Source of the DNA: Bradyrhizobium sp. Arg816
GTDB lineage: Bacteria > Pseudomonadota > Alphaproteobacteria > Rhizobiales > Xanthobacteraceae
Direction of reading: 5' to 3'
DNA: 64,000 bases
Assembly (NCBI RefSeq): GCF_029989365.1
Contig: NZ_JAPRAQ010000002.1
Span: 496,001 to 560,000 of the forward strand
Shown here: piece by piece, positions 1,261-18,064 of the stretch
Numbering within the stretch: position 1 is the first letter of the stretch
Layout of the letters: each line of letters opens with the position of its first letter
Translations under genes and position numbers: made by a program
Notes under the pieces: model-generated
What the model was told of the DNA's origin: nothing
Databases searched by the model: none
Seen by the model: the letters and a program-made list of their open reading frames with translations, nothing else

Positions 1261-1263
1261 ACC

Positions 1264-2184: not shown

Positions 2185-2264
2185 TGGCGCGGCGATCGGT
2201 GGTAAAATTTTTCAGCCCCCTCTTGAAACTAAAATCAGCTTTGCTAATTTTTTTGTTGCCATTT

Positions 2265-2364
2265 GACGATGGCGTCCGGGCGCCTGAAGGGCCCGGGCCA
2301 AGAGACGGGCACCGGTTGTGTCCGGTGCCGCTCGTAGACATCTTGCTCTTAGGAGGATTTGGCT
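2265..2364 (+). promoter_or_regulatory. ROSE-type RNA thermometer
   Basis: The leader contains a GC-rich hairpin around 2277-2297 and a perfect stem (GGCACCGG at 2308-2315 with CCGGTGCC at 2322-2329). A 3' hairpin follows in which TTGCT (2343-2347) faces the Shine-Dalgarno AGGAGG (2351-2356). This UYGCU-versus-AGGA arrangement just before an Hsp20 start is the hallmark of ROSE elements in rhizobia. They melt on heat shock and free the ribosome site. The structure was paired by eye. Confidence 0.85.
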
Positions 2365-2823: not shown

Positions 2824-2888
2824 CGCTGTCGCCCTTGGAGCCGCGCGACGTGCGGCTCCATCCGTTCGTCACTGAAAAGGAGAGGACC

Positions 2889-3212
2889 ATGCGGCCGACG
2901 ACCGCTGACGACAACGTTTTCGATTTCAACGCTCTTCTTCATCCCGGCGCAGTGTTTCAAGCACCGAGAGACGTGCTGGATCATCCGGCCCTGACGTTGG
3001 CCGAGAAGCGCGCAATTCTGGCATCATGGGCGTCCGACGCGTCCACGATCGCCTCTTGCCCGTCGATGCGCGCACCTGCCGGCCTCAAGAAGCCGGTTGC
3101 GATCGACGAGATCTTGGACGCGTTGTGCGCACTAGACGGTGGCCCCCGAACGCCACCCGGCGGAAAGCCTTACCGTCTCCGTTCGACCGAACGTGCGGCT
3201 GCGGCGGCGTAG
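2889..3212 (+). CDS. hypothetical protein, 107 aa
   Basis: Not assigned to a family, although similar proteins occur in rhizobia as far as I recall. The segment VLDHPALTLAEKRAILASWA (residues about 27-46) is helix-rich and acidic/basic amphipathic. The C-terminus is Pro/Arg rich and ends in Ala repeats. The ATG at 2889 is preceded by AAAGGAGAGGA. It lies 65 bases after the Hsp20 gene on the same strand and is followed 13 bases later by another small gene, so all may share a stress-related transcript; that is inference. Confidence 0.75.
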   Translation: MRPTTADDNVFDFNALLHPGAVFQAPRDVLDHPALTLAEKRAILASWASDASTIASCPSMRAPAGLKKPVAIDEILDALCALDGGPRTPPGGKPYRLRSTERAAAAA

Positions 3213-3225
3213 TTTCGGAGGCCAG

Positions 3226-3453
3226 ATGATGATGGACGAGAACCTGGCACGCCTTCGTGCCCATCACAACAACATCAGCCGCTACCGCCGGCTCCTCCGT
3301 ACCAAGTTTCTGCCTTTGGAACGCCAGTTTATCGAACGGCGACTTTCCGAGGAGGAGGCCGCTCTGCAAAGCCTTTCCGCTTCGACCTTCCCGATCGCCT
3401 TCAAGGAGCCAAGGCTTGGTCCACCGATGCCTGTTGCAGACGTGAGGCCATGA
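3226..3453 (+). CDS. hypothetical protein, 75 aa, helical
   Basis: A small, highly charged helical protein. Residues 4-45 form an amphipathic stretch (LARLRAHHNNISRYRRLLRT, then LERQFIERRLSEEE), which suggests a helical hairpin or a coiled coil. There is no membrane segment and no recognised catalytic motif. Three successive ATG codons (3226, 3229, 3232) could serve as the start. It follows the previous small gene closely. I recall similar short proteins in Bradyrhizobium and Rhodopseudomonas with unknown function. Confidence 0.75.
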   Translation: MMMDENLARLRAHHNNISRYRRLLRTKFLPLERQFIERRLSEEEAALQSLSASTFPIAFKEPRLGPPMPVADVRP

Positions 3454-3579
3454 GCACGACCGCTAACCCGAGCCGACCGGGCTCGGGCTCGTTCCCTCGC
3501 TCCTCGGGAGGTTCTTCGTGCGCGAATATTGAAGACTCTGGCTGCGGATGGCGTATCATCGGCCGTGGAGATTTCAGGG

Positions 3580-3789
3580 ATGGCTATCTCGACCAACGAG
3601 CGTCCGATGTGTCCTGTGTGCAAGCACGGGATGGCCTTGGCGCGCATCTCTCCCGGCCCCAGCGGATTCAATGAGCGCACCTTCGAGTGCTCGACTTGCG
3701 AGCGTACCGAAGTGGTCCGCTTCGCCGTGGATCCGATGCAAACTGACGCGGTTGGCTGGCTCGCCGGCGAACTGAAGCCGCCAAACTGA
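3580..3789 (+). CDS. small zinc-ribbon protein
   Basis: A 69-residue protein with two Cys pairs, CPVC near residue 11 and CSTC near residue 37, the pattern of a zinc ribbon. The C-terminus WLAGELKPPN resembles the end of the protein at 38012-38290 (WLQGDLHPPK), and both carry one Cys pair before and one after a 20- to 30-residue loop, so they are probably paralogues. The function is unknown; zinc ribbons of this size often bind nucleic acid or partner proteins. The start at 3580 is preferred because the upstream extension in the same frame is poor coding sequence. Confidence 0.75.
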   Translation: MAISTNERPMCPVCKHGMALARISPGPSGFNERTFECSTCERTEVVRFAVDPMQTDAVGWLAGELKPPN

Positions 3790-3930
3790 AGTTCGCGAGC
3801 CCGGCCCTAGGACCTATCCGGGCCGTGGCGTGAAGTGCGGAAGGCAAGGGCCGTATGCCGGCCAAATCCGCGTGATGCGGCTCGCATCTCCCGGCGCTTG
3901 ACATGGCAACTATGAATTGAGGAGGCGAGA

Positions 3931-4146
3931 ATGGTCCTGATAGGACTTGGCGCCCTGCTTGTTCTCGGCGGAATCTTGTACATGGCACGCGCTACTATTT
4001 GGCGGGGATCGCTTAGTCGACCCGCTGGCGATACACTGGAGCCGACGCGGCGCGGCGTGGGATTCTTGGGGGTCGGAGCGAACTGGCCGGGCATTCTCCT
4101 TTTGGCAATCGGTGTCCTTCTGTTGGTATTGGGGGCCGGCCTCTAG
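3931..4146 (+). CDS. small two-segment membrane protein
   Basis: A 71-residue protein with a hydrophobic segment at the start (LIGLGALLVLGGILYMA) and another at the end (ILLLAIGVLLLVLGAGL), joined by a basic loop. This predicts a helical hairpin in the inner membrane. AGGAGG lies about nine bases before the ATG. No family is recognised. It is the last plus-strand gene before the minus-strand prophage block. Confidence 0.75.
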   Translation: MVLIGLGALLVLGGILYMARATIWRGSLSRPAGDTLEPTRRGVGFLGVGANWPGILLLAIGVLLLVLGAGL

Positions 4147-4337
4147 GCTAAGCCAGCCGCCGAGCTGCCGCCCTGGATGACAAGATAGTATCGGCGCTTC
4201 AGCCGATGGCTTGTGGTTGTAACGGCGTTTTGGAGACGATCGAGGTCCGCATCTCTTTAGCAATCGCGAGCAATCGCTAATTCAGGGCCATCGGGTTCCG
4301 CGTTTCCGTGTTCAACCTCGACTGTTCGGACTTGAGA

Positions 4338-4799
4338 TCATCCGAGATATGAGACGTCCTTTGCCCGCGATGCCAGTTCACCCTCCACCTTGTCGATCTC
4401 AGCTTGGTTGCGCTCAATGAAGGCAGCGAGCTCATCCCGCGACATCTCAGAAAGTGCCTTCTGTTGTGACGAGCTATCCTTGCGAGTTGGCGCGATGTGA
4501 CCTGCCCGGTCCAGCACCTTGATCGAAAGGTCGGCCCGAACTCGAGCACTAACGCTTTCATCCTGGAGAAGTGACTTCGCCACTCGATAAGCAAGCGGCG
4601 CGCCGACCACAGCCAGATCGAGCTGGATCGATTCCGAAATTGCAGATGCGACCGCGGGCAGCCGCATTGTCTTATAGACCGACTTGGGATGATAGCCAGC
4701 CAGTTCCGCGGCTTCCTCGGGGCGTTTTCCCTCATTGACGATAAGGCGCACCAATGCTCGCTGCTGTTCAGAAAGATCGTAAGCCGCAATGGAAGGCAT
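4338..4799 (-). CDS. phage terminase small-subunit-like protein
   Basis: A 153-residue protein whose first 60 residues (DLSEQQRALVRLIVNEGKRP and following EAAELAGYHPKSVYKTMRLP) form a helix-turn-helix. This is typical of phage small terminase subunits, which recognise the packaging site on phage DNA. The C-terminal half is a charged helical region, compatible with oligomerisation. The start at 4799 has AAGGAG seven bases upstream. It begins one base after the stop of the upstream virion gene, so translation is probably coupled. No large terminase or portal gene is present here, so the locus is a remnant or a satellite. A general DNA-binding role is the alternative. Confidence 0.65.
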   Translation of the reverse strand: MPSIAAYDLSEQQRALVRLIVNEGKRPEEAAELAGYHPKSVYKTMRLPAVASAISESIQLDLAVVGAPLAYRVAKSLLQDESVSARVRADLSIKVLDRAGHIAPTRKDSSSQQKALSEMSRDELAAFIERNQAEIDKVEGELASRAKDVSYLG

Positions 4800-4800
4800 C

Positions 4801-7707
4801 TCAATCTCCTTGACTCTCGCGTGACGCATTCGCAGCTGCGATCAGACGGCGCAAGTCGATGTTGTACTGGGGCAGGTTCGGATTCTTCACGGGCCGCTCC
4901 AAGAGGAATGCAGCCACGTTTGGATCGAACCAAGCCATGTGAATGATCTCGTCAGCATTCTGCTTGTTCGAAGGTAGCATCTCGAGGAGCAACTTGAACC
5001 GCTTGATCAAGCCACCGCCGGCGAGATCGCCTTTGAAGTGGCGAACGGCAAGTTGGGCCCAACCGGGAATGTTGAGTTTCTCGGCCGTATCGCTGCCGAC
5101 GGAAGCCCGCTTCTCAGCTTCCTTGAAGTACGACAGGATCTTGTGTGCCTGGCGCAGGTTGTTCATCTCTTCAGGGGAAAAGGTCTTCGCGAGCAGCGCT
5201 TCGTTGTCCTTGAACTCCTTCGCGAGACGAGCGAATTGGACTTCCAGGGTCTCACCGATCTGGCGGGTGCCTTGGACCTTGTCGGCGAGGACCTCGGACA
5301 CTGCTGCCTTCCAGCCTCTCAGAGCCTGCGGGTCGCTCTTTATGAGCGCATTGATTTCGTCGAGCTTTGCGTCCGCGCCGTACTTGCTGCCCAAGAACTT
5401 CTGAGCCACGCTACGCGGATCCTCGCGGAGCAGCGTGCCGACGGCCGATCGATCAATTTCAGCTTCCGTTGCTTTGCGTGCTGTGCGGGCAGCCTCGAGA
5501 TCCGCCCTTGCTTGCGCTGACATCTGCTCTCCACGCCGCGCGGCGGCGGTGATGTCGTCGAACTCACCTCGCACGGCGGGAAACTGAGCCAAGACATCCG
5601 CGTGATTCTGGGACCATGCGTTTGCACGGATCGAATTGACCGTTCCGTCGGGATTCAGCGCTGATTTGGCGAAGTCTGCACGAAGATAATCGCGAAGTGC
5701 GGCGTGGCCGGCCTCTGCGGCGGGCGATCCTTCAAGCGCGCGTGGAACCGTGGCCGCGGTCTCCCGAGACGCCAAGAACCTGCCGGCCGTGTCGCTCGGC
5801 GGGTTCGCGCCGCGATTGAGCTCGCCGTCAGCATTCTGGCCGCCGCGGTCTAGCTCTTTAGTGAACTTCGCCATCTCGTCGTTGCGCTCGGGACGGAAAC
5901 GCTCGGCGAACTGGCCATAGTTGGCGTTGGCCTCGGCGTAGCCCGGAGCTTCCTCGATCGTGCGGTTCACCGCGCGCCGGAGCACTTGCAGGTTGTCGGC
6001 CAGGTCGAAATTGCCGCGGGCTTGGGCCTGCTGATGCGCCGGACCGATGAATTTGCGAAGGTCGGCCAGATCGCCGCCGAGGGCTGTGCCAGGCCCGCCA
6101 ACATTGATCATTTGCCCACTTTCCGGCGGGTGTTCCACTATCTGCGGCCGGAGCGCATTTAGACGTCGCATGAAGTCTTCCGGAACTGTGCCCGGCGCCA
6201 AGTTGTTCGCGCTTCCGCGAATGCGATCGATGGCCGCGAAGACACTGTCTGCCGGAAGCTCCTCGGCCCGGCCGGGGGCGCTATCGAACAGGCGGTTCTT
6301 CTCGGCGCGAGCCGGCACGTAGGTTCGGTCCACAAGTGCTTCGTCTAACCGTCGTGAAGCATTCGCTTTAACCTCGCTGTTTGCGAGTGCGCCGAACGGC
6401 TCGCCTTGAACTGCCCGGATCCGATCAACAGCACGAGTCGCATCTTCCCTCTGCAAAATGTCGCTCTCCGCGGCGCCCATACGTTCTTCACGCACCTGCG
6501 CGGCGCGGCGCATGACTGAGCTCAGGTCCGCTTCCGGGTCCCGCATGGACTCCACGCGCTCGGCGGCCTCGGCCTTCACGTTCTGGTCTCGCTTGATGAA
6601 ATCCGGCGACGTCTCGAGGCGAGCTCGATGCTCAGCCGTTATCAGACCCGGATCCCCGGACAGCAGCCCGGAAGTCGGCATGGCGGAGCTCTGCAACGGC
6701 GTGGCGCCTGCCTCGGTCGGCCTCGCCAGAGCCGCCGCGTTCTCGCGGACATCTTGCGCCAATGCCCGCGGTGCTCCCGATGCTGCGGCTTGGATCTTCG
6801 TAGCCGCGCGATCGACGTCAGCCATAATGAACGGCGCTTTGGTGTTCGGATTGAGCGGGATGGGCGCCGGCGCTGAGGCAAATGTCTTGGACGCCAAGTT
6901 GCGGATCGTGCCAGCAAGCCCTTCCACGGTGCCCTGGAGAGTGTTTGCACCCGCGCCCCCGACGAGAGGAGCGAGAATGTTCGCTGTGGTCTTGATCCAA
7001 TCTCCGCCAACAGGATGTTCAGGAATGAAGTCGTCCGCGGCATTGACGGCGACGCCGGCACTTATGCCGCCGATGGTATCTCCGACGAGTGTTCGCGCTG
7101 GCGCCTCAGTGTATAGCCTGGCCATGTGATCGAGGACGCGGCCGACTGCCGTATCCGAACGTGCTGCGGCCTCGGCCACCTGCGGCGCGCGCTGCGCCAG
7201 CATGGCGCCGGTGCCGGCGGCTTGGGTCCCGAACCGGTTGACGTCATAGGCAAGCTTCTCACTTCGCGACATAGTCGCTGGATCGATGCCGGGAAGGACC
7301 GAGGTAGCCTTCTCGACCAGCTTGGACGCCGGGATCGCGGGCGCGATGTTCGTGCCGAAGACCTTGTTGATGCCGCCGGTGACGAGGTTCTGCGCGCCGG
7401 CCGCGAGATCGAACGGACCGGTGACGATGTCGGTGAGGCCCTTGCCGACACCTTGGGCGCCAACGGTGAAGTCGCGCACGGCGCCGCCGACGCTGCTCGG
7501 GAGGAGCGACGCGGGGCGGTCGATCGGCTGCGGCGCTTCGGGAGTGACGTAGAGGCGCCCCGCTGCGGCCGCGTTCTGCGCACCGAGACCGGGCGCCGGG
7601 GGCGCGGCCGCAGCCGGAACGCTCGCGAGCGCGCGCTGAATGTCTGCCGGCGTGAAGTCGTCGGGGAATTCGTGCTGCTGACCTTCGAAATCGACTAGCT
7701 GGGGCAT
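4801..7707 (-). CDS. large phage virion protein, probable DNA-ejection type
   Basis: A 968-residue protein beginning with a short structured motif (LVDFEGQQHEFPDDFTPADI, residues 4-23) that I associate with phage internal or ejection proteins. An Ala/Pro linker, Gly/Ala-rich hydrophobic stretches between residues 80 and 270, and then a long helical, strongly charged region follow. This layout fits virion proteins expelled with DNA from podovirus-like particles to cross the cell envelope. The exact function is inference; no enzymatic motif is evident. It lies between the tail fibre gene (upstream) and the small-terminase-like gene. An in-frame start at 7719 is less likely than 7707, which has GGAG upstream. 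Confidence 0.7.
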   Translation of the reverse strand: MPQLVDFEGQQHEFPDDFTPADIQRALASVPAAAAPPAPGLGAQNAAAAGRLYVTPEAPQPIDRPASLLPSSVGGAVRDFTVGAQGVGKGLTDIVTGPFDLAAGAQNLVTGGINKVFGTNIAPAIPASKLVEKATSVLPGIDPATMSRSEKLAYDVNRFGTQAAGTGAMLAQRAPQVAEAAARSDTAVGRVLDHMARLYTEAPARTLVGDTIGGISAGVAVNAADDFIPEHPVGGDWIKTTANILAPLVGGAGANTLQGTVEGLAGTIRNLASKTFASAPAPIPLNPNTKAPFIMADVDRAATKIQAAASGAPRALAQDVRENAAALARPTEAGATPLQSSAMPTSGLLSGDPGLITAEHRARLETSPDFIKRDQNVKAEAAERVESMRDPEADLSSVMRRAAQVREERMGAAESDILQREDATRAVDRIRAVQGEPFGALANSEVKANASRRLDEALVDRTYVPARAEKNRLFDSAPGRAEELPADSVFAAIDRIRGSANNLAPGTVPEDFMRRLNALRPQIVEHPPESGQMINVGGPGTALGGDLADLRKFIGPAHQQAQARGNFDLADNLQVLRRAVNRTIEEAPGYAEANANYGQFAERFRPERNDEMAKFTKELDRGGQNADGELNRGANPPSDTAGRFLASRETAATVPRALEGSPAAEAGHAALRDYLRADFAKSALNPDGTVNSIRANAWSQNHADVLAQFPAVRGEFDDITAAARRGEQMSAQARADLEAARTARKATEAEIDRSAVGTLLREDPRSVAQKFLGSKYGADAKLDEINALIKSDPQALRGWKAAVSEVLADKVQGTRQIGETLEVQFARLAKEFKDNEALLAKTFSPEEMNNLRQAHKILSYFKEAEKRASVGSDTAEKLNIPGWAQLAVRHFKGDLAGGGLIKRFKLLLEMLPSNKQNADEIIHMAWFDPNVAAFLLERPVKNPNLPQYNIDLRRLIAAANASRESQGD

Positions 7708-7801
7708 CGATCGCTCCAATTGCTGAAGTGCATTGCCTCGTTAGTCGGGTGCGTCTTTCTAACTCCGAGGATCTCCGAGACTGGTTCGATCTGGCCCGCC
7801 A

Positions 7802-9598
7802 TCAGTAATGCGGCCTAACCCGCACAAAGAAATTAGTGCTTGGGAGGTCAACCGCGCCGCTTGTTGGGTTCGTCAGCCTGATGGTGACTGTGTTCGCGGC
7901 GCTGACGTAACCTGTCACAAGCAAGCCAGTGTCTACGCCAAGCTCTATTCTGACCTGGTCGCCCACCGCCGCCGGAAAAACAGTGACAGTGCCGATGGTC
8001 GCAGACGAGTTGGCCGCAAGACTGACAGGGTCGATCGTAACCTTCTTGACGAGCTCGTCTCGCACATCGATCGTCAGTGCGTTCGTGTTGAGGATGTACC
8101 GGCCCCAATCCCCGCTGCTGAGATAATTGGGCCCGAGGATAGGCGGAGTTTCGCTGTCTAGATTGAGACCGCTGTACTGGAAAAACGCCCCGAGGGCGTT
8201 GACCGACTCAATCCGATTGTTCTGGATGATCAGGCCTACGATCCGGGTTTTGTTAGTTCCAGTCGTCCTGCCGTTGAACTTGATGCCTTCAATGATGCCC
8301 TCGAACGAGTTATCGAGGATTTTAATTCCGTTACCAACTGTGGCACCAGCAGCAGTATCAACCGATGTATCTGCACCCACGAAGCGAATAGGGGTATCCA
8401 CGTTCGCGAAGTTGTTCTTCGTGATTGAAACCGCGTTGATTGCGCCCTCCATTCGAATGGCGTTCGGCATACCGGTACCACCACCCTTGAAGCGGCAGTT
8501 CTCGACCTCAATCCAGAAACACCCGGTATCGCCGTCTGTCGTGTTCGTCTGTTGTAGACGGATTGCGGCATAGTTTACGTTCGGAGCCGTCCCGCCGTCT
8601 GCGCCACTAGTGAAAGTGAGATTGCGCAGGACAAGATTGATGACGCCTGTCGCATCGATACCCCACTGCGCATTGGCGTCCTGAAAGGCATTGAACGAAA
8701 GACCCTCAATCAGGGTTATTCTCGCCTCTTCGACGCGAAACCCAAAATAGGTTGGACGAGTAATCCGCAGCCCTACCCTAAATTGCGTCGGATCAGTCCG
8801 AAGCTGCGCCCCGTAACCGATCAGGGTGAAGCCGTTGTTGCCGGCGCCGTTGGTAATCGTAAGATCGGCCCCTGAGACAAAATACTTCTTGCCGGAATCG
8901 AAACGGCCTTCCTTACCGGAAGACGCGACGGCATTGATAAACGCCTGCAAAGCGGCGTAATCATTGGTCGTGTCGTCCCCCACCGCTCCGAACTCTGAGG
9001 CAAACAACGTGTTGTTCAAGCGCCGAATGAGCGGCGAAGAAACAGCGCCCGTTTCGGTCTGCATGTACGAGCCTAAAACACCGGCCGTACCTTGCGCTCC
9101 CTGAATACCAGGGATTCCCTGTGGCCCTTGGACGCCCTGTGGACCGGGGGCGCCTTGGTTTCCCTGCGGACCTTGCGGACCTTGCGCGCCTCGGGGCCCT
9201 TGCGGGCCAGCGCTTACCGCCGTGATAAAAACCCACTTCCCGGCCGCCAAGTCCGCAGCAAATACGCCTGAAGTGTGCGCGACCGCGCAACGATACAGCC
9301 CGTTGTTGGCGATAACGGCCTCGGCGACGGCGTACTGCGTGCCTGTTGCCCATGCGTACGCCGGCGCCATACCTGCCGCCAACAAATCCGGGTCCAGCTG
9401 ATCTACACCCACCGAGCCATTCATCAACGCACCGTCGGAGCGGAGCGACTTCTTGAGGAAATCGGCCGTTTCGACCGTGGACAGCGCTACGGCGTTCAAA
9501 TCTGCATGGATCGACGTGGCCGGCAACGGCCGATTGGGATTGGCGTTCTGATACGCCACGTAGTCGTATTGGCGCGTGTATTTGGTGGGATAGCTCAT
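7802..9598 (-). CDS. phage tail fibre with collagen-like and beta-helix parts
   Basis: A 598-residue receptor-binding fibre. Residues 1-60 are a virion-attachment-like start. Residues about 80-125 resemble a carbohydrate-binding or chitin-type module ending in [10 protein letters not shown]. Residues 131-172 contain fourteen Gly-X-Y triplets, a collagen-like stalk. After residue 200, [20 protein letters not shown] is the usual opening of a pectate-lyase-like right-handed beta-helix, followed by Asn-ladder repeats to about residue 480. The C-terminal 110 residues form a beta-rich cap. Such fibres bind, and sometimes cleave, surface polysaccharide. It is the most upstream gene of the minus-strand remnant. 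Confidence 0.9.
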
Positions 9599-10004
9599 TT
9601 CGCCGACGGGGTGAGAGGAAATGCGCGGGATTGCGCGGTGGGTGCCGTCGGCGAAGCGGCGTAGACGTCCGTGGGATGACTGTAGAGGAATGAGGTTGGC
9701 AAACAGTTACGGCGCAGGATCTTCCGTCACTCAGAGGCCCTCTCGGATTTAATACCCAATAGACCGTTCGGCGCACACCCGCCCGACCAGATGACACGCC
9801 CTACCTTTCCTTCTGCGGGACTAGCGATGCAGAGGTGCGGTGTGATGCGCTGCAACGAAACGAGACCGCTGCTTGCTGCATTGCGTCTCGCGATCGGTAA
9901 AATCGGTATGCATTCACCTTTTGCAAACACATGAAAGCGTGTTCAGGAACGCGCCTCAAAAGATCGCATTGTCCTTCTGCTTTACAATTGTGGTGAGGCC
10001 GACC
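9599..10004. other. intergenic region beside the prophage remnant
   Basis: About 400 bases with no supported gene. The region must hold the divergent promoters for the tail-fibre gene (minus) and the RlpA-like gene (plus), but no clear promoter or operator could be identified by eye. Confidence 0.5.
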
Positions 10005-10517
10005 ATGCGTCTTCTTTGTAGAATAGTTGCCATTGCAACAGTCCCAGCGTGGATGTGGTTACATGTAGACTCTGCTGCGGCACAGGACTTCAATGATAGG
10101 TGGTCCATCATTCCAAAAGCACACGCCGAGCCCGTCCCTCAGGCACCGGAGCAGACCAATCAGAGCCCGCAAACGCAGTCTCCTATCGAACCGCCGCGAA
10201 ATTCGGAAGACCGCTCAACTACTCGATCTTTCGACCGAGTGTTTTCCGGGAAGGCTTCCTTCTACTCGTATTCGAAACGGAAGACAGCGAACGGCACAAC
10301 GTTCGATCGGGATGCGCTAACTGCAGCTCATCGCAATCTGCCGTTCGGCACCCATGTTCGCGTTACTGACCTTAAGAGCAGCAAATCGGTGGTCGTTCGT
10401 ATCACGGATCGCGGACCATGGGTTCGCGGTCGGGTCATCGACCTCTCGCTTGGCGCCGCTCGCAGCTTAGGAATTACCGATCGTGGCGTCGCCCAGGTTC
10501 GCGTAGTGGTGCTTTAG
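10005..10517 (+). CDS. RlpA-like double-psi beta-barrel protein
   Basis: A 170-residue exported protein of the RlpA family, whose members act on glycan strands of peptidoglycan at the septum. A hydrophobic signal segment (residues 5-27) ends at SAAAQ, followed by a Pro/Gln-rich linker. A complete double-psi beta-barrel comes next, with GKASFYSYSKRKTANGTTF, AAHRNLPFGTHVRVTD and the conserved VRITDRGPWVRGRVIDLS. There is no SPOR domain, so this is a short form. The start at ATG 10005 gives a sensible signal peptide. It is flanked by the prophage fibre and an exported unknown, so a phage-linked or surface role is possible. Confidence 0.88.
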   Translation: MRLLCRIVAIATVPAWMWLHVDSAAAQDFNDRWSIIPKAHAEPVPQAPEQTNQSPQTQSPIEPPRNSEDRSTTRSFDRVFSGKASFYSYSKRKTANGTTFDRDALTAAHRNLPFGTHVRVTDLKSSKSVVVRITDRGPWVRGRVIDLSLGAARSLGITDRGVAQVRVVVL

Positions 10518-10668
10518 CCGCAAGTCGGCGCCCTGCGAGGACGGCATGCGTCGACGCCCGGTGACAGAGAATCAAGCACAATTTTCCTGGTGATAGCTCA
10601 CCGCTGGCGGTTTGATGGGAGCTCGCGCAGCCGTAACGTCCAAGCATATTTATTTGGGGGAGATTTCA

Positions 10669-11736
10669 GTGCGCTTTTTGCTTTGCCTGCCTTTCGCAGC
10701 TGCTGTTTCCATGACACCGGCGTTTGCCGCTCCGCCGGCGACTTGCGCCTCAAAGTTCATCGGTGAATGGCGGCACTCCGGAGGAAATAAGGGGACACTC
10801 ACCGCTGACGGAAGGGCCATCTGTAGTGAGCACGCGGCGTGTCAGTCCGAGGGGACCTGGACCTGTTCCGGTAACAATATGACCTACAATACGAGCTTGG
10901 GCTCGTGGGTCTACACGCTACAGCCTGACGGCTCGATTACGGCAAATGGTGGCATCGCGAGAGCCGTTCGGATTGGAAGAGCGCCCCCGGCGCCCGTCAA
11001 GTCCGCTCAGATTAGCTCGAGCGAAGCAGCTGTAGTCGGCAACCAAAACTCAAAACCTGCTAAGTCGACGAAAGATTGTAGCGGCGTCAGCGGAAAGGTG
11101 AACGGCGTCGAACTCACGCCGATGAAGTGTGACGACGCAGCACCAAGGGCCGCTGCACTGGCGCCTGCGCCAAATGCTGAACCAGCCAAACCAACGCAGG
11201 TTACCTCCGGCACGGTGGCCGGATCGAAGCGCGCTATGGATGCCATCGCGGATATCTCGCCGGAGCTCAAGAAGGCGCTTGAGAACGCATCGCTCAGCTT
11301 GGAGAATGCGAAGATTGACCCTTCGCGCGTCAAAGAGCCGGTACTCAAAGAAGCGGAGAAGCGCCCAGCCATAGTGGAAGCAAAGTCGTTTTCCGATAAC
11401 CCGCTGTCTCAACAGGCTGCCGACGTCCCTCAAGATCCGCCGCGAGAGATCACCGACCTTGACCCGGAAGACTACGCGAAGAAGTGCAGGGATGAATCCT
11501 TCGAAAGCGGTCTCAAGAGCCTAAAACAGGATATCGCTGCTGCAACCAAAAGCGTAACGCTGGAACGTGATCCGAAAAATAAGAAGACAGCTCGCGGGCT
11601 CAAATTCTACCTAGAAAAATACAAGCTGGTGAAGAAGGTGCTCAAGAGGTGCGCCGTAGAGGTCCTCAATAGGCAAGTGATAGACCCCATCGAACGGAGC
11701 GGAATATTAGCCGACATTGCCGACGACCCGCAGTGA
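10669..11736 (+). CDS. exported hypothetical protein, 355 aa
   Basis: A secreted or periplasmic protein of unknown function. The GTG at 10669 has GGGGGAG seven bases upstream and directly opens a signal peptide (RFLLCLPFAAAVSMTPAFA). Residues 22-100 have a lipocalin- or DUF-like beta pattern with paired Cys residues (GEWRHSGGNKGTLTADGRAI, then CQSEGTWTC). A low-complexity linker follows, and the last 100 residues are a charged helical tail. It shares the strand with the RlpA-like gene but is 150 bases away. The convergent STAND gene ends 30 bases after it. Confidence 0.7.
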   Translation: MRFLLCLPFAAAVSMTPAFAAPPATCASKFIGEWRHSGGNKGTLTADGRAICSEHAACQSEGTWTCSGNNMTYNTSLGSWVYTLQPDGSITANGGIARAVRIGRAPPAPVKSAQISSSEAAVVGNQNSKPAKSTKDCSGVSGKVNGVELTPMKCDDAAPRAAALAPAPNAEPAKPTQVTSGTVAGSKRAMDAIADISPELKKALENASLSLENAKIDPSRVKEPVLKEAEKRPAIVEAKSFSDNPLSQQAADVPQDPPREITDLDPEDYAKKCRDESFESGLKSLKQDIAAATKSVTLERDPKNKKTARGLKFYLEKYKLVKKVLKRCAVEVLNRQVIDPIERSGILADIADDPQ

Positions 11737-11766
11737 GCGCGGCTCTTGAACTCTAGGATTTATAAA

Positions 11767-13548
11767 CTAGCGAAGCTGCTTCTCGTCGCCCAGCGCTTTA
11801 TCGAACCCTTGAGCCTTGGGAACTTTTGCTTCCTCGTCGTCGTCCTCACGCACCGCTAACTTGAGCCTCGTAGCCAATCGCTCGTACTTGGCAGCGTCTC
11901 TAGGTTGGCCTAGATGGCCCAACACGCCTGCAACGGCGGCTGCAGCGGCCGCCAAGATCAGTGTCGCCACCCGCACGCCTTGTCGCGTGCTTAGAACGAT
12001 TCCGATCAATCCGTAAAAGAGAGCCGCGCCGTAGACATCGGCGTACGTTATTCGCCCACCCTTGACTAAAGAAACAGTTAGGTCGAATAAGAAATATCCC
12101 ACGCCGCCTAAAATAGATAATCCGGCGAGTATCCGACCTACCCGCTGCACTGTCTCAAGAGGGACCTTCGGTGGAAGAACCTCCCACTTCACTAAAGCTA
12201 GTCCTATGACATCGTGCCCGAGCACGAAGCAATTGATCGATCTGTTCGAGGCCGCGTTGTAGACGCTGACGGGTCGAATGATGCGCCGCTCGTCAAGAAA
12301 CTTGATCGTCGCCTCATCTAGCGGAATCTCGCACTCGGCGACAGCCACTTCGTCGGCAAGCTTTTGTTCCGGTACTAGTTCGGTCGTCACCGTGCCGTCA
12401 ACCTGCGTTTTCGTCAACTTCAACAGGACCGAACGCCATTTTTCTGTCTCCCGGTCAATGCGCTCTTGGTCCAGGTTTTTGTCATTGCAGAGGTCTTTTA
12501 GTGATTCCTTGACGTAGGCTTCGATCGGTTGCTCGACCCCCTCGTAGTCGCCACGCTTAATTGTGATCAATCCTTCTCCCCGCCGCTCGCGCGCCGTCTT
12601 GTAGATACGGCTGCACGCGAGCTGCATGACAGGAAGAACTCCCCCGGTCGGGACTGCTTCTTCTAAGTCACGCGCGATACGCTCTGCGAGGTGGCGCTCG
12701 TAGCGAAACCGGTATGGCGGAGCAGAAAATCCGTCGATCGGTTTAGCTGCGGTGGGACGCACGATAGCTTCAATAAGCTGCTGCTCATTAAGATCAGTCA
12801 GTAAATAGTCGGCGACCCTGGTAGCGTCAAAAGGGGTGTGGCGTAGGCGAGCCAATAGGCGTCCAAAGTACTCGGTGCGCAAGGTAAGTATGATCTTGAG
12901 ATCCATTTCTGCGCGGAGATACTCATGCATAAAGTCAAAGAAGCGTTCTCGTTCCGCATTGCCCTCCTTGCCAGGCTTGAGAGTGAAGAGCTCCTCCACT
13001 TGATCGATCACTACGGTCAGCGTCTCCGGAAGGGCGGAGGCTAGGCGCGCCAACAGTTCAACCAGCTCTTTTGCTCTGATGCGCCGGATGAAGGCGGATA
13101 AGTTAGCGTCGACATCAAGAATCTCGGAAAAATCGACAACCCTCGGTTGGTCAGGGTCGGCCTCGTTCGCCAACGTGCGAGATTGCGTCGATAGGTAGTG
13201 TATGGCCTCCGCAAGACGCGAGAATGGATCATCGGTGCACCGAATAAAAATGGGTGCATCGCGATCCTTGTCGCGAATGAACAAGAATCCGTTTTCACTC
13301 CGCTCGAGAAGTGGCACCAAGGCCGCACGCAAGAACGAGGATTTGCCACTGCCGGTGCTGCCATGAAGCACGAACAGACGCGTACCGGGAGCCCCGACTA
13401 ATCTAGCGCATATGGAAAGATCGTCCCGACGGCCGGCAAAAAGCGGGGTATCTTCCGACTCGTAGTAGTTGAGGCCCTTGTATGGCTCCGGCGGCCATTC
13501 CGAGACCAATGGCTCCGCGTCCTTAATCACGAAGGTCGGCAAGGTCAT
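11767..13548 (-). CDS. STAND NTPase (nSTAND1-like) with membrane tail
   Basis: A 593-residue signal-transduction ATPase. It opens with the nSTAND1-type entry PYKGLNYYESEDTPLFAGRR (residues 23-42). Walker A is GSTGSGKS at 63-70 and Walker B is VVIDQVEEL at 179-187. An Arg-containing sensor region and a winged-helix-like part follow. In place of WD40 or TPR sensor repeats, the C-terminal third holds three to four hydrophobic segments (around residues 465-560) and a charged tail, so the protein is probably anchored in the inner membrane. It is the last gene of the operon, overlapping the CHAT gene by ATGA. STAND proteins oligomerise on sensing a trigger; which trigger applies here is unknown. 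Confidence 0.88.
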   Translation of the reverse strand: MTLPTFVIKDAEPLVSEWPPEPYKGLNYYESEDTPLFAGRRDDLSICARLVGAPGTRLFVLHGSTGSGKSSFLRAALVPLLERSENGFLFIRDKDRDAPIFIRCTDDPFSRLAEAIHYLSTQSRTLANEADPDQPRVVDFSEILDVDANLSAFIRRIRAKELVELLARLASALPETLTVVIDQVEELFTLKPGKEGNAERERFFDFMHEYLRAEMDLKIILTLRTEYFGRLLARLRHTPFDATRVADYLLTDLNEQQLIEAIVRPTAAKPIDGFSAPPYRFRYERHLAERIARDLEEAVPTGGVLPVMQLACSRIYKTARERRGEGLITIKRGDYEGVEQPIEAYVKESLKDLCNDKNLDQERIDRETEKWRSVLLKLTKTQVDGTVTTELVPEQKLADEVAVAECEIPLDEATIKFLDERRIIRPVSVYNAASNRSINCFVLGHDVIGLALVKWEVLPPKVPLETVQRVGRILAGLSILGGVGYFLFDLTVSLVKGGRITYADVYGAALFYGLIGIVLSTRQGVRVATLILAAAAAAVAGVLGHLGQPRDAAKYERLATRLKLAVREDDDEEAKVPKAQGFDKALGDEKQLR

Positions 13549-14711
13549 ATCGCTGATATCCCGATATCGTCATCGGAAAAATTCTTCAGCTTAGTAGGCG
13601 GCCATTCCTTTGCAACATCCGCGCGCTTGAGCTGGAGGTCGGCATAGCCATTCAGGCTGTAGACTAGGCTCAGTGGCCAATGCAGCCGCCACATCGCGTC
13701 CATTACGTTCACCAGCGGCCAGCCTGCTTCTAGAAAGCAGCGCAGGAACTCTGCGCCGAATCTTAGTGCATATAGGTTGGGAATCTTGGCTTCCGTTCCT
13801 ACAAAGCCGACAAAACCGCGCTGTCCAGTAGCTTCAAGGTAGCCTCGGTCAGCTGCGCCGATTGCCGTGGCGCAGCCATTGAGGAATGTAAGCGTGATCG
13901 CGTCAGGGTATCGGCTCTCGATGCTGAGGTAGCGGCCGAAGTCTTCCGGTGAGACCGAGTCTTTACCGAGCCCGAGCGCGGCACCGTTCGCGTGGCAATA
14001 AAACATCAGAATTCGATCGACGCCGCCTGCATCAACCCATTTCTTGTAGAGGTCCTGCTTGTTGTCGATTTCTCCACCGAACTCCTTAAGTAGGTCTGCG
14101 ATCGATCCCTGCTGCTGGAGATTGAGACTGCCATGTACCTTGTCGTATTCCTTACGATGGACGACCGAGAATATGTGGAACTTGGCCCTTCGTTCGTTGA
14201 TGTCACGAACCCGATGATGCAGGCACGATATTAGGTACTTCAGGCACCAAAAACCGGGATAGTTTGCGAAATCCTTGGTGTTTGCATCATTGGCTATTTG
14301 CTCGGGATCGGCTTCGTAAACCAAGCCCCATGGGATTCGCGTGTAGGTATCGACGTTGATATTGAGGAGTATCGGCAGGTCGCGTTGAGCCAGCCAGCGC
14401 TGGACGCGCTCTGCTTCCGATTGCCCCCCAACTTCCAACGCCCGGAACAACGAATTGTAAAGGAAGTGGCCCCCTCGCGCGACCTGCCTGAGTGCCGAAC
14501 TCACGTTCTGCGAACTCATCTTTGCGATGACAAAATTCCCCAATTCAGTACGCACTTTTTCAGCATCAGAAAGGACCTCTTGCTTGCTGACCAGGTACGT
14601 ACCAAGACCACCTGGCTTGTTGATGCCCCAGGCAAGCTTGAGAGCTCCATCATGGCCGTCGGTGACCGTGACGGTCACCTTCTTTTCGGGGGTTCGGTAA
14701 GAGTACGTCAT
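13545..14711 (-). CDS. CHAT-domain caspase-like protease
   Basis: A 388-residue protein with a C-terminal CHAT (caspase HetF-associated) peptidase. The family hallmarks visible are IPWGLVYEAD (residues 126-135), the catalytic His in FYCHANG (His240), the catalytic Cys in FLNGCATA (Cys280), and the following GFVGFVGTEAKIPN and FLEAGWPLVNVMDAMWRLHW. Both catalytic residues are present, so the enzyme should be active. The N-terminal 120 residues are an uncharacterised beta-rich module. The start at 14711 overlaps the phosphoesterase stop by ATGA; an in-frame GTG at 14726 is possible. By analogy with other CHAT-STAND pairs, the STAND protein may switch this protease on. That is inference. Confidence 0.88.
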   Translation of the reverse strand: MTYSYRTPEKKVTVTVTDGHDGALKLAWGINKPGGLGTYLVSKQEVLSDAEKVRTELGNFVIAKMSSQNVSSALRQVARGGHFLYNSLFRALEVGGQSEAERVQRWLAQRDLPILLNINVDTYTRIPWGLVYEADPEQIANDANTKDFANYPGFWCLKYLISCLHHRVRDINERRAKFHIFSVVHRKEYDKVHGSLNLQQQGSIADLLKEFGGEIDNKQDLYKKWVDAGGVDRILMFYCHANGAALGLGKDSVSPEDFGRYLSIESRYPDAITLTFLNGCATAIGAADRGYLEATGQRGFVGFVGTEAKIPNLYALRFGAEFLRCFLEAGWPLVNVMDAMWRLHWPLSLVYSLNGYADLQLKRADVAKEWPPTKLKNFSDDDIGISAI

Positions 14712-16153
14712 GATCCCGCCTTCCACTCGTTGAGCCGCACGCTATCGGGCGCGGCGGCAACGATCTCGGCAAACAAAAGCCGATACGGGAAATGCTCGAT
14801 GGCTCCGGGGGCCAGCAAGGACCATGAGCTTGGCTCGACCTGCTGCTCGGCGACCCGCAGATAGCGAGTCCAGCTTCCAGTGTTAATGTAGTTGAGGCCG
14901 GCCGGATGATCCTGAGGTTCATGTGTATGGCCCATGATGACTACTTTCGCCCCAGCGTGTCGAAGCAGGTTCTCGGCGGCTTCTCGAAGGGCTTTACTTT
15001 CGTCGGCGACGAAATCGACAACGAATCCTAGCGTGCCATCGCCGCCTTCGATTGAGAGCAACCCTTCCGGCGGCGGCGGAAAGAAGGCAACGACTAGGTC
15101 GAAATTTTCAGCCATACTATCGAGGACAGCGGCTGCGGACGCTTCGTGGGATAGCAAGTCCGGTATAGGCATGACGAACTCGATGCCACGACATTCCAGC
15201 GCGTTGACGAACGCGTCTTGTTGCGGCTCTGGTAACTCTTTCCACGCATCCCGCACGGCCTCGGCAACGGACGGAACGTCCCGCCCGCCTTCCGAGAGTA
15301 GCGCGCCGAGCGACTGCTGCCGGAGTGTTGCGAGAAAGCGCAGGATCCCCCATGCAGCGATTGCCGCTCGGACCGGGGTACCGAAACGGAATAGCGCAGA
15401 TCCTACGAGAAACATCTTCACGAACTTGCTGAACGGTTTCACGTTGTCGACGAACGGGTGGGTCTCATCCAGTTTGTTGAGGTAATCGCAAAGGAACTGA
15501 GTGCCAACGCAGGCCAGCAGCCGCCCTGTGCCGTCAATCTGCACGATTGGCGGCTTCGCGTCGCTCCAGCATTCGCCATCGTCGAAGTAGAAACGGTTGT
15601 TCGTATCATACTGATGCCCGTGTTCGATCCATACCCCCGGCATTTGCGGCGGCCTGTAGACTCGATCGAGATGAAGGACCAGGCGATCACCGACCGGACC
15701 GCCTGCAGTCTCGTCCAGGATCGCCCGCAACCGCGCACGCACATCCGGCCAGAAGAGGTCAGCGTCATGGTTGCCCGGCAAGATCACGAGGCGGTTCGCC
15801 GGCTTCGCCAAAAACCAACCTAGCGCCTTGAAGACGTTCGGATGGTGACGAATGATACTTTCGAGTTTCGCCACCGACTGCGTCTGGGTGAAGCAGAGTT
15901 GTTGTCCTTCCGGAGTGACAGAGCGGAGAGCGGCGTCCTCCCACGGTATCGCTTGTACAAATTCAAGGAAGTCGCCGTTGATCACCAGTTCAACCGGCGC
16001 TGCGCGCTGGCTGATATCGCCGATGAACACCGTGAACTCCAGTTCGATCGGCACGTCGAAGTCATCGAGTGCGCCGGCTCCGATGTGGAGATCGCTGATC
16101 ACAATGAGTGTGCGCGCGTCGTCCCGCACATTCTTGTTGCCGTCTGCATCCAA
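14708..16153 (-). CDS. calcineurin-like metallophosphoesterase
   Basis: A 481-residue two-metal phosphoesterase. Metal-ligand motifs appear in order: SDLHIG (Asp21, His23), NGD (Asp61), GNHD (128-131 region), EHGHQYD, and GHTHEP near residue 421. The closest architectures are UDP-diacylglucosamine hydrolase-like enzymes, but a 200-residue insertion between the fourth and fifth motifs, including a hydrophobic segment (VKMFLVGSALFRFG), is unusual. The substrate could be a nucleotide, a phospholipid or a protein and cannot be read from sequence. It is the first gene of the operon with the CHAT and STAND genes and overlaps the CHAT start by four bases. Confidence 0.85.
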   Translation of the reverse strand: MDADGNKNVRDDARTLIVISDLHIGAGALDDFDVPIELEFTVFIGDISQRAAPVELVINGDFLEFVQAIPWEDAALRSVTPEGQQLCFTQTQSVAKLESIIRHHPNVFKALGWFLAKPANRLVILPGNHDADLFWPDVRARLRAILDETAGGPVGDRLVLHLDRVYRPPQMPGVWIEHGHQYDTNNRFYFDDGECWSDAKPPIVQIDGTGRLLACVGTQFLCDYLNKLDETHPFVDNVKPFSKFVKMFLVGSALFRFGTPVRAAIAAWGILRFLATLRQQSLGALLSEGGRDVPSVAEAVRDAWKELPEPQQDAFVNALECRGIEFVMPIPDLLSHEASAAAVLDSMAENFDLVVAFFPPPPEGLLSIEGGDGTLGFVVDFVADESKALREAAENLLRHAGAKVVIMGHTHEPQDHPAGLNYINTGSWTRYLRVAEQQVEPSSWSLLAPGAIEHFPYRLLFAEIVAAAPDSVRLNEWKAGS

Positions 16154-16977
16154 TCTCGTTCCTCCCCGAGAGTGGCTTCGGCTCTCCGCCGAGGTGCTAA
16201 TCCCTGTCGGGCCGTTCTCGAGAATCCCGCGCGCCCAGGTTGAGAGTCAAGAGCTTTATAACCATCCTGGAAGGCAGGTGCTCCCGGCAACTATGAGGGT
16301 TGGATACTTCATTTGATTTGGTGACTGCCTCCACCAATCTGGTGTTGAAAATTGATTGCCCTGAACTTTCCAGCTTCACAGAATTAGCCGAGCGGCCTTG
16401 CGGACTCTGGACTGCAATCGGGCCCCTCCCCCCGAGGGGTGGGGGTGGACCCGGACGGGGGCCGGCCGGGGCACGCTCCACTTGCGCATGCCGGCTCGCA
16501 CCAACAATGCCAGCCTTTCGTCTTTCGCATTGGCGAGACGTCCGTGGACGTTGTCGAGCGCTGCAAGCGCGATTGCGCGTCGCGCGAGCGAGCTAAGTCA
16601 TTGACGCTACTCGACACTTAGAGCCGCAAAAGCCATTGCGAGACAGGCATTTCTTGTATGATGATGCGAGGTTTCAAAACCCGACAAAAGCGCTCAAATC
16701 GATTAAATGCGCAAAGCGATCAAGCGCTCCACTGTCTGGTTTTACGTATTAGACTTTTCCAGACAAAATTTTCGTTGCTGATTTTTCCGCAAGCCCCATC
16801 CTGATCGCGGGTCGAAAGCCCAAACATCAGCCGATAGCCAATCCGGTCAGCGGCGATCACAAATCTTGTCCAGGGGCCGCGCGCGTATGTCCAAGGCGCA
16901 CGCCCAAAGGCGCGCGGGGCCGTCTGATGTCGGTCATTTCGCCCCTGGACTGCCGTCTTGCTCGAAAGGCAAACATC
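16154..16977. other. 824-base intergenic region, AT-richer stretch inside
   Basis: No supported gene. Bases 16,425-16,480 are an extreme G/C run with hairpin potential (CCCCTCCCC facing GGGGTGGGGG). Bases about 16,620-16,800 are visibly richer in A and T than the surroundings. The promoter of the phosphoesterase-CHAT-STAND operon should lie just left of 16,300 on the minus strand. Short open frames around 16,400-16,620 do not resemble known proteins. Confidence 0.5.
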
Positions 16978-17271
16978 ATGCGCACCTCAATCGCCCTCCA
17001 GACCCCGACGAATTCAAATGACCTTGGCGCCCTGCTTGCCCGCCGTGGGACTGACCTAATCTTGGCCGTTGAGGACGGAAACGCCTTGATTCGGTGCCAT
17101 GTGAGCTCGGCGACCGCCGCGGCGATGCTGGCGCCTCTCAAGGGCCGGGCCGCCGGCCTGTTCCGCGCCCTGTCCGGCAACCTGGTCGAGATCGACGCCG
17201 CGGTGACGCTAGCCACCGCAATCCGAATGCTGGAGGCAAAAGCCGCCGCGGAGAGCCGGCACTTGAACTAA
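16978..17271 (+). CDS. hypothetical protein, 97 aa
   Basis: An unassigned small protein. The ATG at 16978 has AAAGG about nine bases upstream; an earlier in-frame start at 16927 is less likely. It contains the stretch GTDLILAVEDGNALIRCHVS, a beta-hairpin-like pattern, and ends in Ala-rich helices (AAVTLATAIRMLEAKAAAES). It sits between the accessory block and the tRNA-Pro gene, so it could belong to the mobile element. No membrane or metal-binding signature is seen. Confidence 0.55.
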   Translation: MRTSIALQTPTNSNDLGALLARRGTDLILAVEDGNALIRCHVSSATAAAMLAPLKGRAAGLFRALSGNLVEIDAAVTLATAIRMLEAKAAAESRHLN

Positions 17272-17416
17272 GAAAGGGCTACGACGGGCGGCGCAAAACC
17301 CGCCCGACCGGCCTAGAATCGGCGCTCGTGCTTCCCCGGTGCTTCCCCGCGGGTAGCACGGGCGCAATCACGTCAAACAGGGAGACAAAATGTATATGCA
17401 GTTTCAAAGGGTTGAC

Positions 17417-17493
17417 TGGTCGGGGCAGCTGGATTCGAACCAACGACCTGCAGTACCCAAAACTGCCGCGCTACCAGGCTGCGCTATACCCCG
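17417..17493 (-). tRNA. tRNA-Pro(UGG)
   Basis: Read on the minus strand, the gene starts at 17493 and ends at 17417 with encoded CCA. The acceptor arms CGGGGTA and TGCCCCG pair with one G-U. The anticodon stem GCAGT/ACTGC encloses the loop TTTGGGT, giving anticodon TGG. The T arm contains GGTTCGAATCC. The 3' end points towards the accessory region on the left, the usual orientation for tRNA genes used as integration sites. Confidence 0.95.
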
Positions 17494-17581
17494 AATGTCC
17501 GGCGAGCCCCGTCGATACACGCTTCCCAAAGCGCCAGCAAGCTTTCAAGCCGCCAGCAAGGCGGCAATAACCCCGCCCGCC

Positions 17582-18064
17582 CTACTTGGTGCCGAACAGC
17601 GGGTGGCCGACCCGGTCGCCGGGACGGATGCCGTATTTCTGCGCCGTTCCCGCCACCACCTCCAGCACGGCCCGCGCGGGCCCCTGGGACGAGATGATCC
17701 TGGTCGACAGCGGCTCGGTGTTTTCGGCGATGCGCAGGATGCGGCCGTCGGCGCGAATGAAGATCATGTCGAGCGAGACGTAGGTGTTCTTCATCCACAT
17801 CGACACCTCCTGCTCGGGTTTGAAGTCGAACAGCATGCCTTTGCCGTCGGCCAGTTCCTTGCGGTACATCAGCCCGGTCTGCTTCTCCTCCTCGGTCGTG
17901 GCCATTTCAACCGAGAACACCTGCACGCCGTTCCTGGTGACGATTTCGAGCGGCTGGAAACTGGCGGCGCGCACCGGCGCGCTCGCGACGGCACAGCCGA
18001 CGACGAGGATGGCGGCCAGCCAGCCCCTTGCAATGGACCAGACGGCCTTTCGGTCAAAATTCAT
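17582..18064 (-). CDS. DUF192 family exported protein
   Basis: A 160-residue DUF192 protein. The ATG at 18064 opens a twin-basic signal segment (KAVWSIARGWLAAILVVGCA) cleaved after VRAA. The mature domain shows the family motifs EEKQTGLMYRKELADGKGML, MWMKNTYVSLDMIFI and ARAVLEVVAGTAQKYGI. The biochemical role of the family is not settled. An upstream in-frame start at 18163 adds a low-complexity extension and is unlikely. It follows the double cold-shock gene on the same strand with about 150 bases between them. This pairing recurs in rhizobia as I recall. Confidence 0.88.
   Translation of the reverse strand: MNFDRKAVWSIARGWLAAILVVGCAVASAPVRAASFQPLEIVTRNGVQVFSVEMATTEEEKQTGLMYRKELADGKGMLFDFKPEQEVSMWMKNTYVSLDMIFIRADGRILRIAENTEPLSTRIISSQGPARAVLEVVAGTAQKYGIRPGDRVGHPLFGTK

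What the first reader, a model, noticed from the sequence alone, without database searches (positions are those of the whole stretch)
11767..16153. Three-gene metallophosphoesterase-CHAT-STAND operon, candidate undescribed conflict system
Seen: three minus-strand genes (phosphoesterase 14708-16153, CHAT protease 13545-14711, STAND NTPase 11767-13548) with ATGA overlaps at both junctions, so they are made together. All catalytic motifs are intact (D-x-H, GNHD, GHTH; His240/Cys280; Walker A/B). The STAND protein has hydrophobic segments instead of repeat sensors. Known: STAND ATPases and CHAT proteases occur in bacterial self-destruct and anti-phage systems. Inference: a membrane STAND switch activates CHAT, with the phosphoesterase as a second effector, a signal eraser or an antidote. 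The locus lies beside a prophage remnant on a likely mobile region.
Basis: partly seen in the sequence, partly recalled or inferred. Interest (0 to 1): 0.85.

Follow-up and report, generated by a model that had tools for sequence, protein, structure and literature searches.

The report
Protease-coupled phosphoesterase STAND defence operon
Three overlapping bacterial genes beside a prophage remnant look like an undescribed anti-phage alarm in which an ATP-driven switch turns on a caspase-like protease, which probably unlocks a metal enzyme, a design known so far only with a different kind of metal enzyme.

Summary
The trio is real: phosphoesterase (MPE), CHAT-type protease and nSTAND1 ATPase overlap by ATGA at both junctions. 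The same order recurs in five other genomes (four Bradyrhizobium, one Acidobacteriota). No PADLOC system matches.

It sits in a variable slot between a prophage remnant and tRNA-Pro. B. barranii has a divergent, opposite-strand trio there. Of six further loci, one holds a PifA-like gene, one a Schlafen gene, two no added gene, two unrelated genes. This moderately supports defence.

The new clue is the MPE. Among 80 related loci, 25 of 29 MPEs with an enlarged segment before the last metal motif have a protease domain (CHAT or trypsin) beside them, against 0 of 46 without it; five could not be classed. This mirrors the MBL pro-nuclease/protease pairs of Avs1, Hachiman and canu (Tuck et al. 2025), but with a calcineurin-type enzyme.

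Best explanation: STAND triggers CHAT, which cleaves and activates the gated MPE. Not shown: phage defence, cleavage, substrate. The STAND C-terminus is swappable (hydrophobic helices or patatin, catalytically degenerate in three of four), so it may tether or sense rather than kill. New variant of a known kind.

The parts
14708..16153 (-). Calcineurin-like metallophosphoesterase (MPE), 481 aa, TTG start
   Evidence: ORF; PF00149 E=1e-7; expected metal ligands invariant in 8 homologues
14933..15433 (-). Enlarged segment of the MPE between metal motifs IV (HGH, 178-180) and V (GHTH, 408-411), residues about 241-407: candidate gate
   Evidence: motif IV to V distance 230 aa in the window, 204-273 aa in MPEs with an adjacent protease, 133-135 aa in most unlinked ones; gating is inference
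13545..14711 (-). CHAT (caspase-like) protease, 388 aa
   Evidence: ORF; His240 and Cys280 invariant; one orthologue passes Pfam CHAT
13992..13994 (-). CHAT His240 codon
   Evidence: alignment
13872..13874 (-). CHAT Cys280 codon
   Evidence: alignment
11767..13548 (-). nSTAND1 NTPase, 593 aa
   Evidence: PF20703 E=1e-38; Walker A/B and GHD motif
13339..13362 (-). Walker A of the STAND protein (residues 63-70)
11920..12141 (-). C-terminal hydrophobic module of the STAND protein (residues 470-543), position taken by patatin in four homologues
14708..14711 (-). ATGA overlap, MPE stop / CHAT start
   Evidence: sequence
13545..13548 (-). ATGA overlap, CHAT stop / STAND start
   Evidence: sequence
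11782..16591 (.). Stretch missing from the otherwise syntenic slot of genome G740 (about 154 bp there)
   Evidence: blastn; alignment puts the borders at about 11785 and 16644
17417..17493 (-). tRNA-Pro (TGG) beside which the prophage remnant and its slot lie
4338..9598 (-). Prophage remnant: small terminase-like, 972-aa protein, collagen-repeat tail fibre

Best explanation
A prophage-borne anti-phage operon. The nSTAND1 protein is the ATP-dependent switch. On infection it assembles and switches on its co-translated CHAT protease. CHAT then cleaves the MPE in the enlarged segment between its last two metal motifs and so opens the active site of a pro-enzyme that attacks DNA, a nucleotide or a lipid, killing or arresting the infected cell. 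The C-terminal membrane-type module of STAND places or gates the complex at the membrane. Shown here: gene order, conserved catalytic residues, coupling of enlarged MPEs to proteases, and a slot that holds other defence-type genes in two relatives. Inferred: defence, activation order, cleavage, substrate, membrane role.
For: Order MPE-CHAT-STAND in six genomes including an Acidobacteriota MAG. Of 80 MPE loci found by MPE alone, 25 of 29 with the enlarged segment have a CHAT or trypsin domain starting within 400 nt of the MPE end on the same strand; 0 of 46 without it; 5 could not be parsed, 1 of these linked. CHAT partners lie in two separate clades of the MPE tree. Conversely, among 11 loci found through weaker CHAT matches, two have an enlarged MPE right behind the CHAT gene. 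Same slot: PifA-like (PADLOC E=1e-126) plus a PDC-S05 match in G609, Schlafen AlbA_2 in G735 (no PADLOC match), a divergent trio on the other strand in B. barranii, whose chromosomal flank beyond the slot is 93% identical. The mechanism is shown for MBL-fold enzymes with trypsin or caspase partners in Hachiman, Avs1 and canu (PMC12799240: abstract, passages, part 1 of 6 of the text and sections 8 and 9 seen).
Against: No structure: AlphaFold of CHAT was poor (mean pLDDT 40.5), that of STAND weak (54.0), and the MPE was not modelled, so occlusion of the active site is untested. Four enlarged MPEs (L012, L060, L065, L080) have no adjacent protease (L060 has one 2.9 kb on). A CHAT-STAND pair without MPE exists (L088), so MPE is not always needed. 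Part of the segment between motifs is shared with short MPEs; about 90 aa are extra. Of the six slot loci that lack the trio, four hold no recognised defence gene.
Confidence: 0.48

Rival explanations
1. Membrane-killing version: CHAT cleaves or releases the C-terminal membrane module of STAND (hydrophobic helices or patatin), which damages the membrane; the MPE is a second lipid- or headgroup-directed hydrolase.
For: STAND C-terminus is exchangeable between hydrophobic helices (window, L008) and patatin (L009, L010, L011, L106); patatin may also occur at the N-terminus of the CHAT protein of L177 beside an MPE (below threshold, 23.5 vs 27.7 bits); the weak solved-structure hits of the MPE profile include LpxH, a lipid enzyme (E 0.07).
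Against: Patatin has Ala for the nucleophile Ser and Thr for the dyad Asp in L009, L011 and L106; only L010 keeps both. Enlarged MPEs pair with proteases also where Pfam shows no membrane or lipase domain (Paraburkholderia and Methylobacterium CHAT proteins; hydrophobic segments not computed there).
Confidence: 0.2
2. MPE is a signal eraser or antidote that degrades a nucleotide messenger or otherwise restrains CHAT-STAND.
For: Calcineurin-type enzymes that cleave cyclic nucleotides are listed in conflict systems (PMC7159879, passages). MPE is encoded first, as many antidotes are (recalled).
Against: No cyclase or messenger-binding domain among the trio. MPE pairs with proteases of two folds. 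L088 keeps CHAT-STAND without an MPE in 19.5 kb, so MPE is not an obligatory antidote.
Confidence: 0.12
3. Not an anti-phage system: a host or prophage regulatory or developmental protease module, for example lysis control, as the CARD-NLR-like LypABC controls gene transfer agent release.
For: It sits beside phage structural genes; LypABC (PMC13236601, passages) shows that a protease-NLR set can serve lysis of a domesticated prophage. Four of six slot loci without the trio hold no recognised defence gene.
Against: The trio is in two of eight slot loci and the slot swaps cargo among strains; rare and patchy: 5 strong hits in 265 Bradyrhizobium genomes; none of the three remnant genes was found within about 9 kb of the trio in L008, L009, L010 or L106.
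Confidence: 0.12

Closest known systems
AVAST type 1 (Avs1: MBL-fold nuclease, trypsin-like protease, STAND)
   Same: Upstream metallohydrolase gene, protease, STAND ATPase; in Avs1 the hydrolase has insertions that appear to block its active site (PMC12799240, passages).
   Different: Hydrolase is calcineurin-like, not MBL fold; protease is CHAT, a separate gene, not trypsin fused to the next protein; STAND has a membrane-type C-terminus. No PADLOC Avs hit for the window proteins.
canu (caspase-nuclease) systems
   Same: Caspase-family protease with a metallohydrolase in a three-gene locus.
   Different: canu nuclease is MBL fold and lies downstream of an Ig-bearing caspase (PMC12799240); the window MPE lies upstream, and the third gene here is a STAND ATPase.
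Bacterial CARD-NLR / gasdermin systems
   Same: Protease plus NLR-type ATPase.
   Different: Trypsin-like peptidases in LypA and LypC (PMC13236601, passages); no gasdermin domain among the ten window proteins put to Pfam.
EACC1 and nSTAND1 conflict systems of the Aravind group (2020, 2021)
   Same: nSTAND1 was defined there; calcineurin-like and caspase domains appear as effectors (PMC8195603, PMC7159879, passages).
   Different: The passages seen do not describe an MPE-CHAT-nSTAND1 operon or a protease-coupled MPE.
PifA (F plasmid)
   Same: A PifA-like KAP NTPase fills the same slot in genome G609.
   Different: Unrelated protein; context only.

Membership tests
AVAST (Avs1) | STAND NTPase component | tested here: met
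   nSTAND1 E=1e-38
AVAST (Avs1) | MBL-fold hydrolase Avs1a | tested here: not met
   Calcineurin-like PF00149, no MBL family at E up to 1
AVAST (Avs1) | Trypsin-like protease Avs1b | tested here: not met
   CHAT family; no Avs model hit
canu | Caspase-family protease | tested here: met
   CHAT/caspase-like by one orthologue and by profile
canu | MBL-fold pro-nuclease downstream of the caspase | tested here: not met
   MPE fold, upstream
canu | Ig-like domain in the caspase protein | tested here: inconclusive
   No Pfam domain found in the window CHAT; structure model poor
Protease-activated metallohydrolase pairs (Tuck et al. kind) | Hydrolase and protease genes coupled across contexts | tested here: met
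   25 of 29 vs 0 of 46, 5 unparsed
Protease-activated metallohydrolase pairs (Tuck et al. kind) | Insertion that blocks the active site | tested here: inconclusive
   Enlarged segment between metal motifs found; blocking not modelled
Protease-activated metallohydrolase pairs (Tuck et al. kind) | MBL-fold hydrolase | tested here: not met
   so it may work like this kind but is not a member by descent
Protease-activated metallohydrolase pairs (Tuck et al. kind) | Cleavage activates the hydrolase | not testable with these tools
   Needs biochemistry
CHAT protease family | His-Cys dyad and family profile | tested here: met
   H240/C280 invariant; B. lablabi orthologue 28.7 bits vs cutoff 24, five other orthologues without a CHAT hit; the window protein itself has no hit
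Any PADLOC 2.0.0 defence system | Model match for the trio | tested here: not met
   Only weak partial hits (mad3 1e-4, PDC-S10 1e-3)
Anti-phage defence | Reduces phage plating | not testable with these tools
   Context evidence only

The most novel reading that the evidence does not exclude
Calcineurin-type phosphoesterases are a second, independently evolved class of protease-unlocked immune pro-enzymes: they gained a gate near the active site and are shared between CHAT, trypsin-STAND-WD40, trypsin-NACHT and trypsin-CTD2 (Lamassu-like) contexts across several phyla, with the window trio as the CHAT-STAND branch.
Probability: 0.4. Interest if true: 0.85.

Novelty: new variant of a known kind. 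Interest (0 to 1): 0.7.

Why it matters
Tuck et al. [quoted passage not shown] The first is met here by an unrelated metallohydrolase class and the second is suggested, with an internal contrast between enlarged and short enzymes. That makes their conjecture directly testable with a compact three-gene operon, adds a caspase-like protease to STAND immunity in soil bacteria, and points to a swap slot in a Bradyrhizobium prophage remnant as a place to look for further defence genes.

Tried and rejected
Plasmids: no CHAT match; MPE matches led to Paraburkholderia and Methylobacterium pairs. Viral contigs: no relative for CHAT or MPE with single-protein queries, which reach close relatives only. 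Phages: none for MPE or the 972-aa phage protein. E. coli genomes: none by near DNA search of the MPE gene. These tools may leave out records near the window's genome. AlphaFold of CHAT and STAND gave weak models, so no fold search was run; the two jobs were then spent and the MPE could not be modelled. Profile-profile comparison of the CHAT family with the long CHAT proteins of other MPE loci was not significant (probability 1.5, E 0.033). PDB: no CHAT hit; weak VPS29, LpxH and one other hit for MPE. Island ends: no second copy of the tRNA-Pro 3' end in the window and no long direct repeat in 1-18000; integrase not searched for. Promoter and terminator scan near chance level. Rejected: hydrophobic helices as the defining sensor, since patatin replaces them; patatin as a general killing effector, since three of four copies lack both catalytic residues. 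Direction of change at the empty slot is open: 24 nt of G740 resemble the end of the STAND gene, so loss is possible.

Limits of the counts. One search worked on 400 pattern matches (a round number, perhaps a cap) and kept 80 of 119 confirmed loci. rests on profiles that I seeded from these same loci; seeds were checked with Pfam, but the trypsin label of L042, L057, L059, L076-L078, L069, L070 and L085 is mine (L057 also matches Avs1b and RT-protease models). In L085 the protease domain starts 196 nt before the called MPE end, probably because the MPE frame was called too long.
Full report
OBSERVATION. The sequence shows ATGA at both junctions. Pfam gives nSTAND1 for STAND (E=1e-38) and calcineurin-like phosphoesterase for MPE (1e-7), and nothing for the window's CHAT protein. 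The CHAT label rests on relatives: the B. lablabi orthologue passes the Pfam CHAT threshold, while five other orthologues do not, two of them with a sub-threshold match to the caspase-clan Peptidase_C25. The family profile finds ten further, weaker Bradyrhizobium proteins. Of six of these put to Pfam, three pass the CHAT threshold, two are below it and one has no hit. PADLOC has no convincing match for any of the three genes. The CHAT gene has one match in the window's own genome.

RECURRENCE. A scan of a collection of 84,980 species genomes with an MPE alignment gave 400 pattern matches (perhaps a cap) and 119 confirmed relatives, of which the best 80 were kept. Four of these have MPE-CHAT-STAND in the same order: B. 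lablabi L008, B. guangdongense L009, an Acidobacteriota MAG L010 and B. barranii L011. So six genomes are known to carry it; this is a lower bound. In wider samples searched with CHAT it is rare: 1 of 198 genomes of the family, the window's own, and 2 of 299 of the phylum, the window's own and G348. In an order-level sample around G348, 2 of 299 matched, G348 itself and a weaker one. G348 has CHAT and STAND joined by a 4-nt overlap but no MPE in 19.5 kb.

WHAT VARIES. The MPE and the NTPase part are conserved. The STAND C-terminus is not: hydrophobic helices in the window and L008, one hydrophobic helix plus about 500 residues in G348, and a patatin domain in L009, L010, L011 and L106. The patatin catalytic Ser and Asp are kept in L010 only; L009, L011 and L106 have Ala and Thr (positions of the dyad recalled). 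This fits a membrane-type tether or sensor as well as an effector.

THE MPE-PROTEASE LINK. Behind many of the 80 MPEs lies a CHAT or a trypsin-like domain, alone or fused to nSTAND1-WD40, NACHT or CTD2 parts; the long CHAT proteins of Paraburkholderia and Methylobacterium have a C-terminal part that matches TPR-S below threshold in one case. The link follows the shape of the MPE. When the distance between metal motifs IV and V is at least 200 residues, 25 of 29 have the protease within 400 nt on the same strand; when it is shorter, 0 of 46; five could not be parsed, of which one is linked. By plain length (440 aa or more) it is 25 of 32 against 0 of 48. Of the 48 short ones some contigs end early: 37 have at least 1 kb of room. 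The exceptions with a long distance are L012, L060 (protease 2.9 kb on), L065 and L080. In the tree of 41 MPEs the trio MPEs form one clade (100/99) and the other protease-linked MPEs another (100/100, with three unlinked ones inside); CHAT partners need at least two changes. The backbone that places short MPEs between the two clades is weak (65/62). A motif before the extra residues is present in strict form in 25 of 34 long MPEs and 0 of 46 short ones, but short ones have a looser counterpart by eye, so about 90 residues are really extra. A check from the CHAT side: of 11 loci found through weaker CHAT matches, two (L096/L176 and L098/L177) carry an enlarged MPE just behind the CHAT gene, one of them with a possible N-terminal patatin.

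SETTING. The trio lies between a prophage remnant (small terminase-like, 972-aa protein, tail fibre) and tRNA-Pro. A neighbouring DUF192 gene served to find the site in relatives: 111 of 117 genomes matched and 40 of the 110 non-own ones were fetched. All 40 have a tRNA-Pro there; the remnant follows in one of the 40, and in most of the others come genes shared among the sampled loci. The tail protein matched 12 of 257 genomes, and the 11 non-own ones were fetched. With B. barranii, eight loci can be compared at the slot. Contents: the trio (window); a divergent trio on the other strand in B. barranii, whose chromosomal flank beyond the slot is 93% identical to the window, the other flank 83-87%, while its MPE is about 38% identical; a PifA-like gene plus a PDC-S05 match (G609); a Schlafen AlbA_2 gene without PADLOC match (G735); no added gene in G740, where about 4.8 kb of the window is replaced by about 154 bp, and at most 0.9 kb in G676, which has the remnant near a tRNA-Thr; a binding-protein-like gene (G738); a lipoprotein-like gene (G731, which has the tail gene only). 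So of the six loci without the trio, two hold other defence-type genes. The other six loci fetched by the tail protein lack the window's flank and were not studied further.

HOW IT MAY WORK. Tuck et al. (PMC12799240; abstract, passages, part 1 of 6 of the text and sections 8 and 9 seen) showed that MBL-fold nucleases in Hachiman, Avs1 and canu are gated pro-enzymes opened by a partner trypsin or caspase, and suggested that other enzyme classes may work likewise. The window operon has the same layout with a calcineurin-type enzyme. I therefore propose STAND, then CHAT, then MPE activation. Not shown: any phage phenotype, cleavage, occlusion of the active site, and the substrate. The main text of that paper holds no mention of phosphoesterase, calcineurin or CHAT. 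The passages I saw in the two conflict-system papers do not describe this set, nor does any title or abstract start listed by my searches (several lists were cut); the library holds open-licence papers only, so absence from print is not established.

VERDICT. A real, mobile, conserved operon of defence type; a new variant of a known kind. The design is not new, but its metallohydrolase class is, as far as searched, and the enlarged-MPE/protease coupling extends well beyond the window.

Noticed in passing
window 4338-9598 and L128, L129, L143, L011/L172, L122: A small prophage remnant (terminase-like, 972-aa, tail fibre) recurs beside tRNA-Pro in several Bradyrhizobium, and near a tRNA-Thr in one, with changing cargo: PifA-like plus PDC-S05, Schlafen AlbA_2, the trio, or nothing.
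   Followed up: partly
L006 9186-13464 (Methylobacterium plasmid NZ_CP099612.1): Next to an MPE-CHAT pair lies a second set: ORC-CDC6-like ATPase, an MPE with a sub-threshold wHTH-Calcineurin_assc tail and a hypothetical protein.
   Followed up: no
L138 6013-9186 (-): A 1057-aa fusion of nSTAND1 with an OpgC_C membrane domain, about 5 kb behind the same tRNA-Pro in another Bradyrhizobium.
   Followed up: no
L066 8932-12338: Enlarged MPE followed by a trypsin-CTD2 protein that matches PADLOC LmuA, a Lamassu-like setting with an MPE where the MBL enzyme would be.
   Followed up: partly
L177 7842-11980 (-): Possible patatin-CHAT fusion (patatin below threshold) followed by an enlarged MPE.
   Followed up: partly
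window 9873-11736 (+): RlpA-like DPBB gene and a 374-aa hypothetical gene travel with the remnant in G740 as well.
   Followed up: no
L120 (G000:C10:125136-126407): A second relative of the tail fibre elsewhere in the same genome.
   Followed up: no
L011 1628-2902, 14036-15685 and 17023-18297: Two inverted copies of one 424-aa ORF flank the B. barranii remnant and trio, and a DDE_5 transposase lies between the trio and one copy.
   Followed up: no
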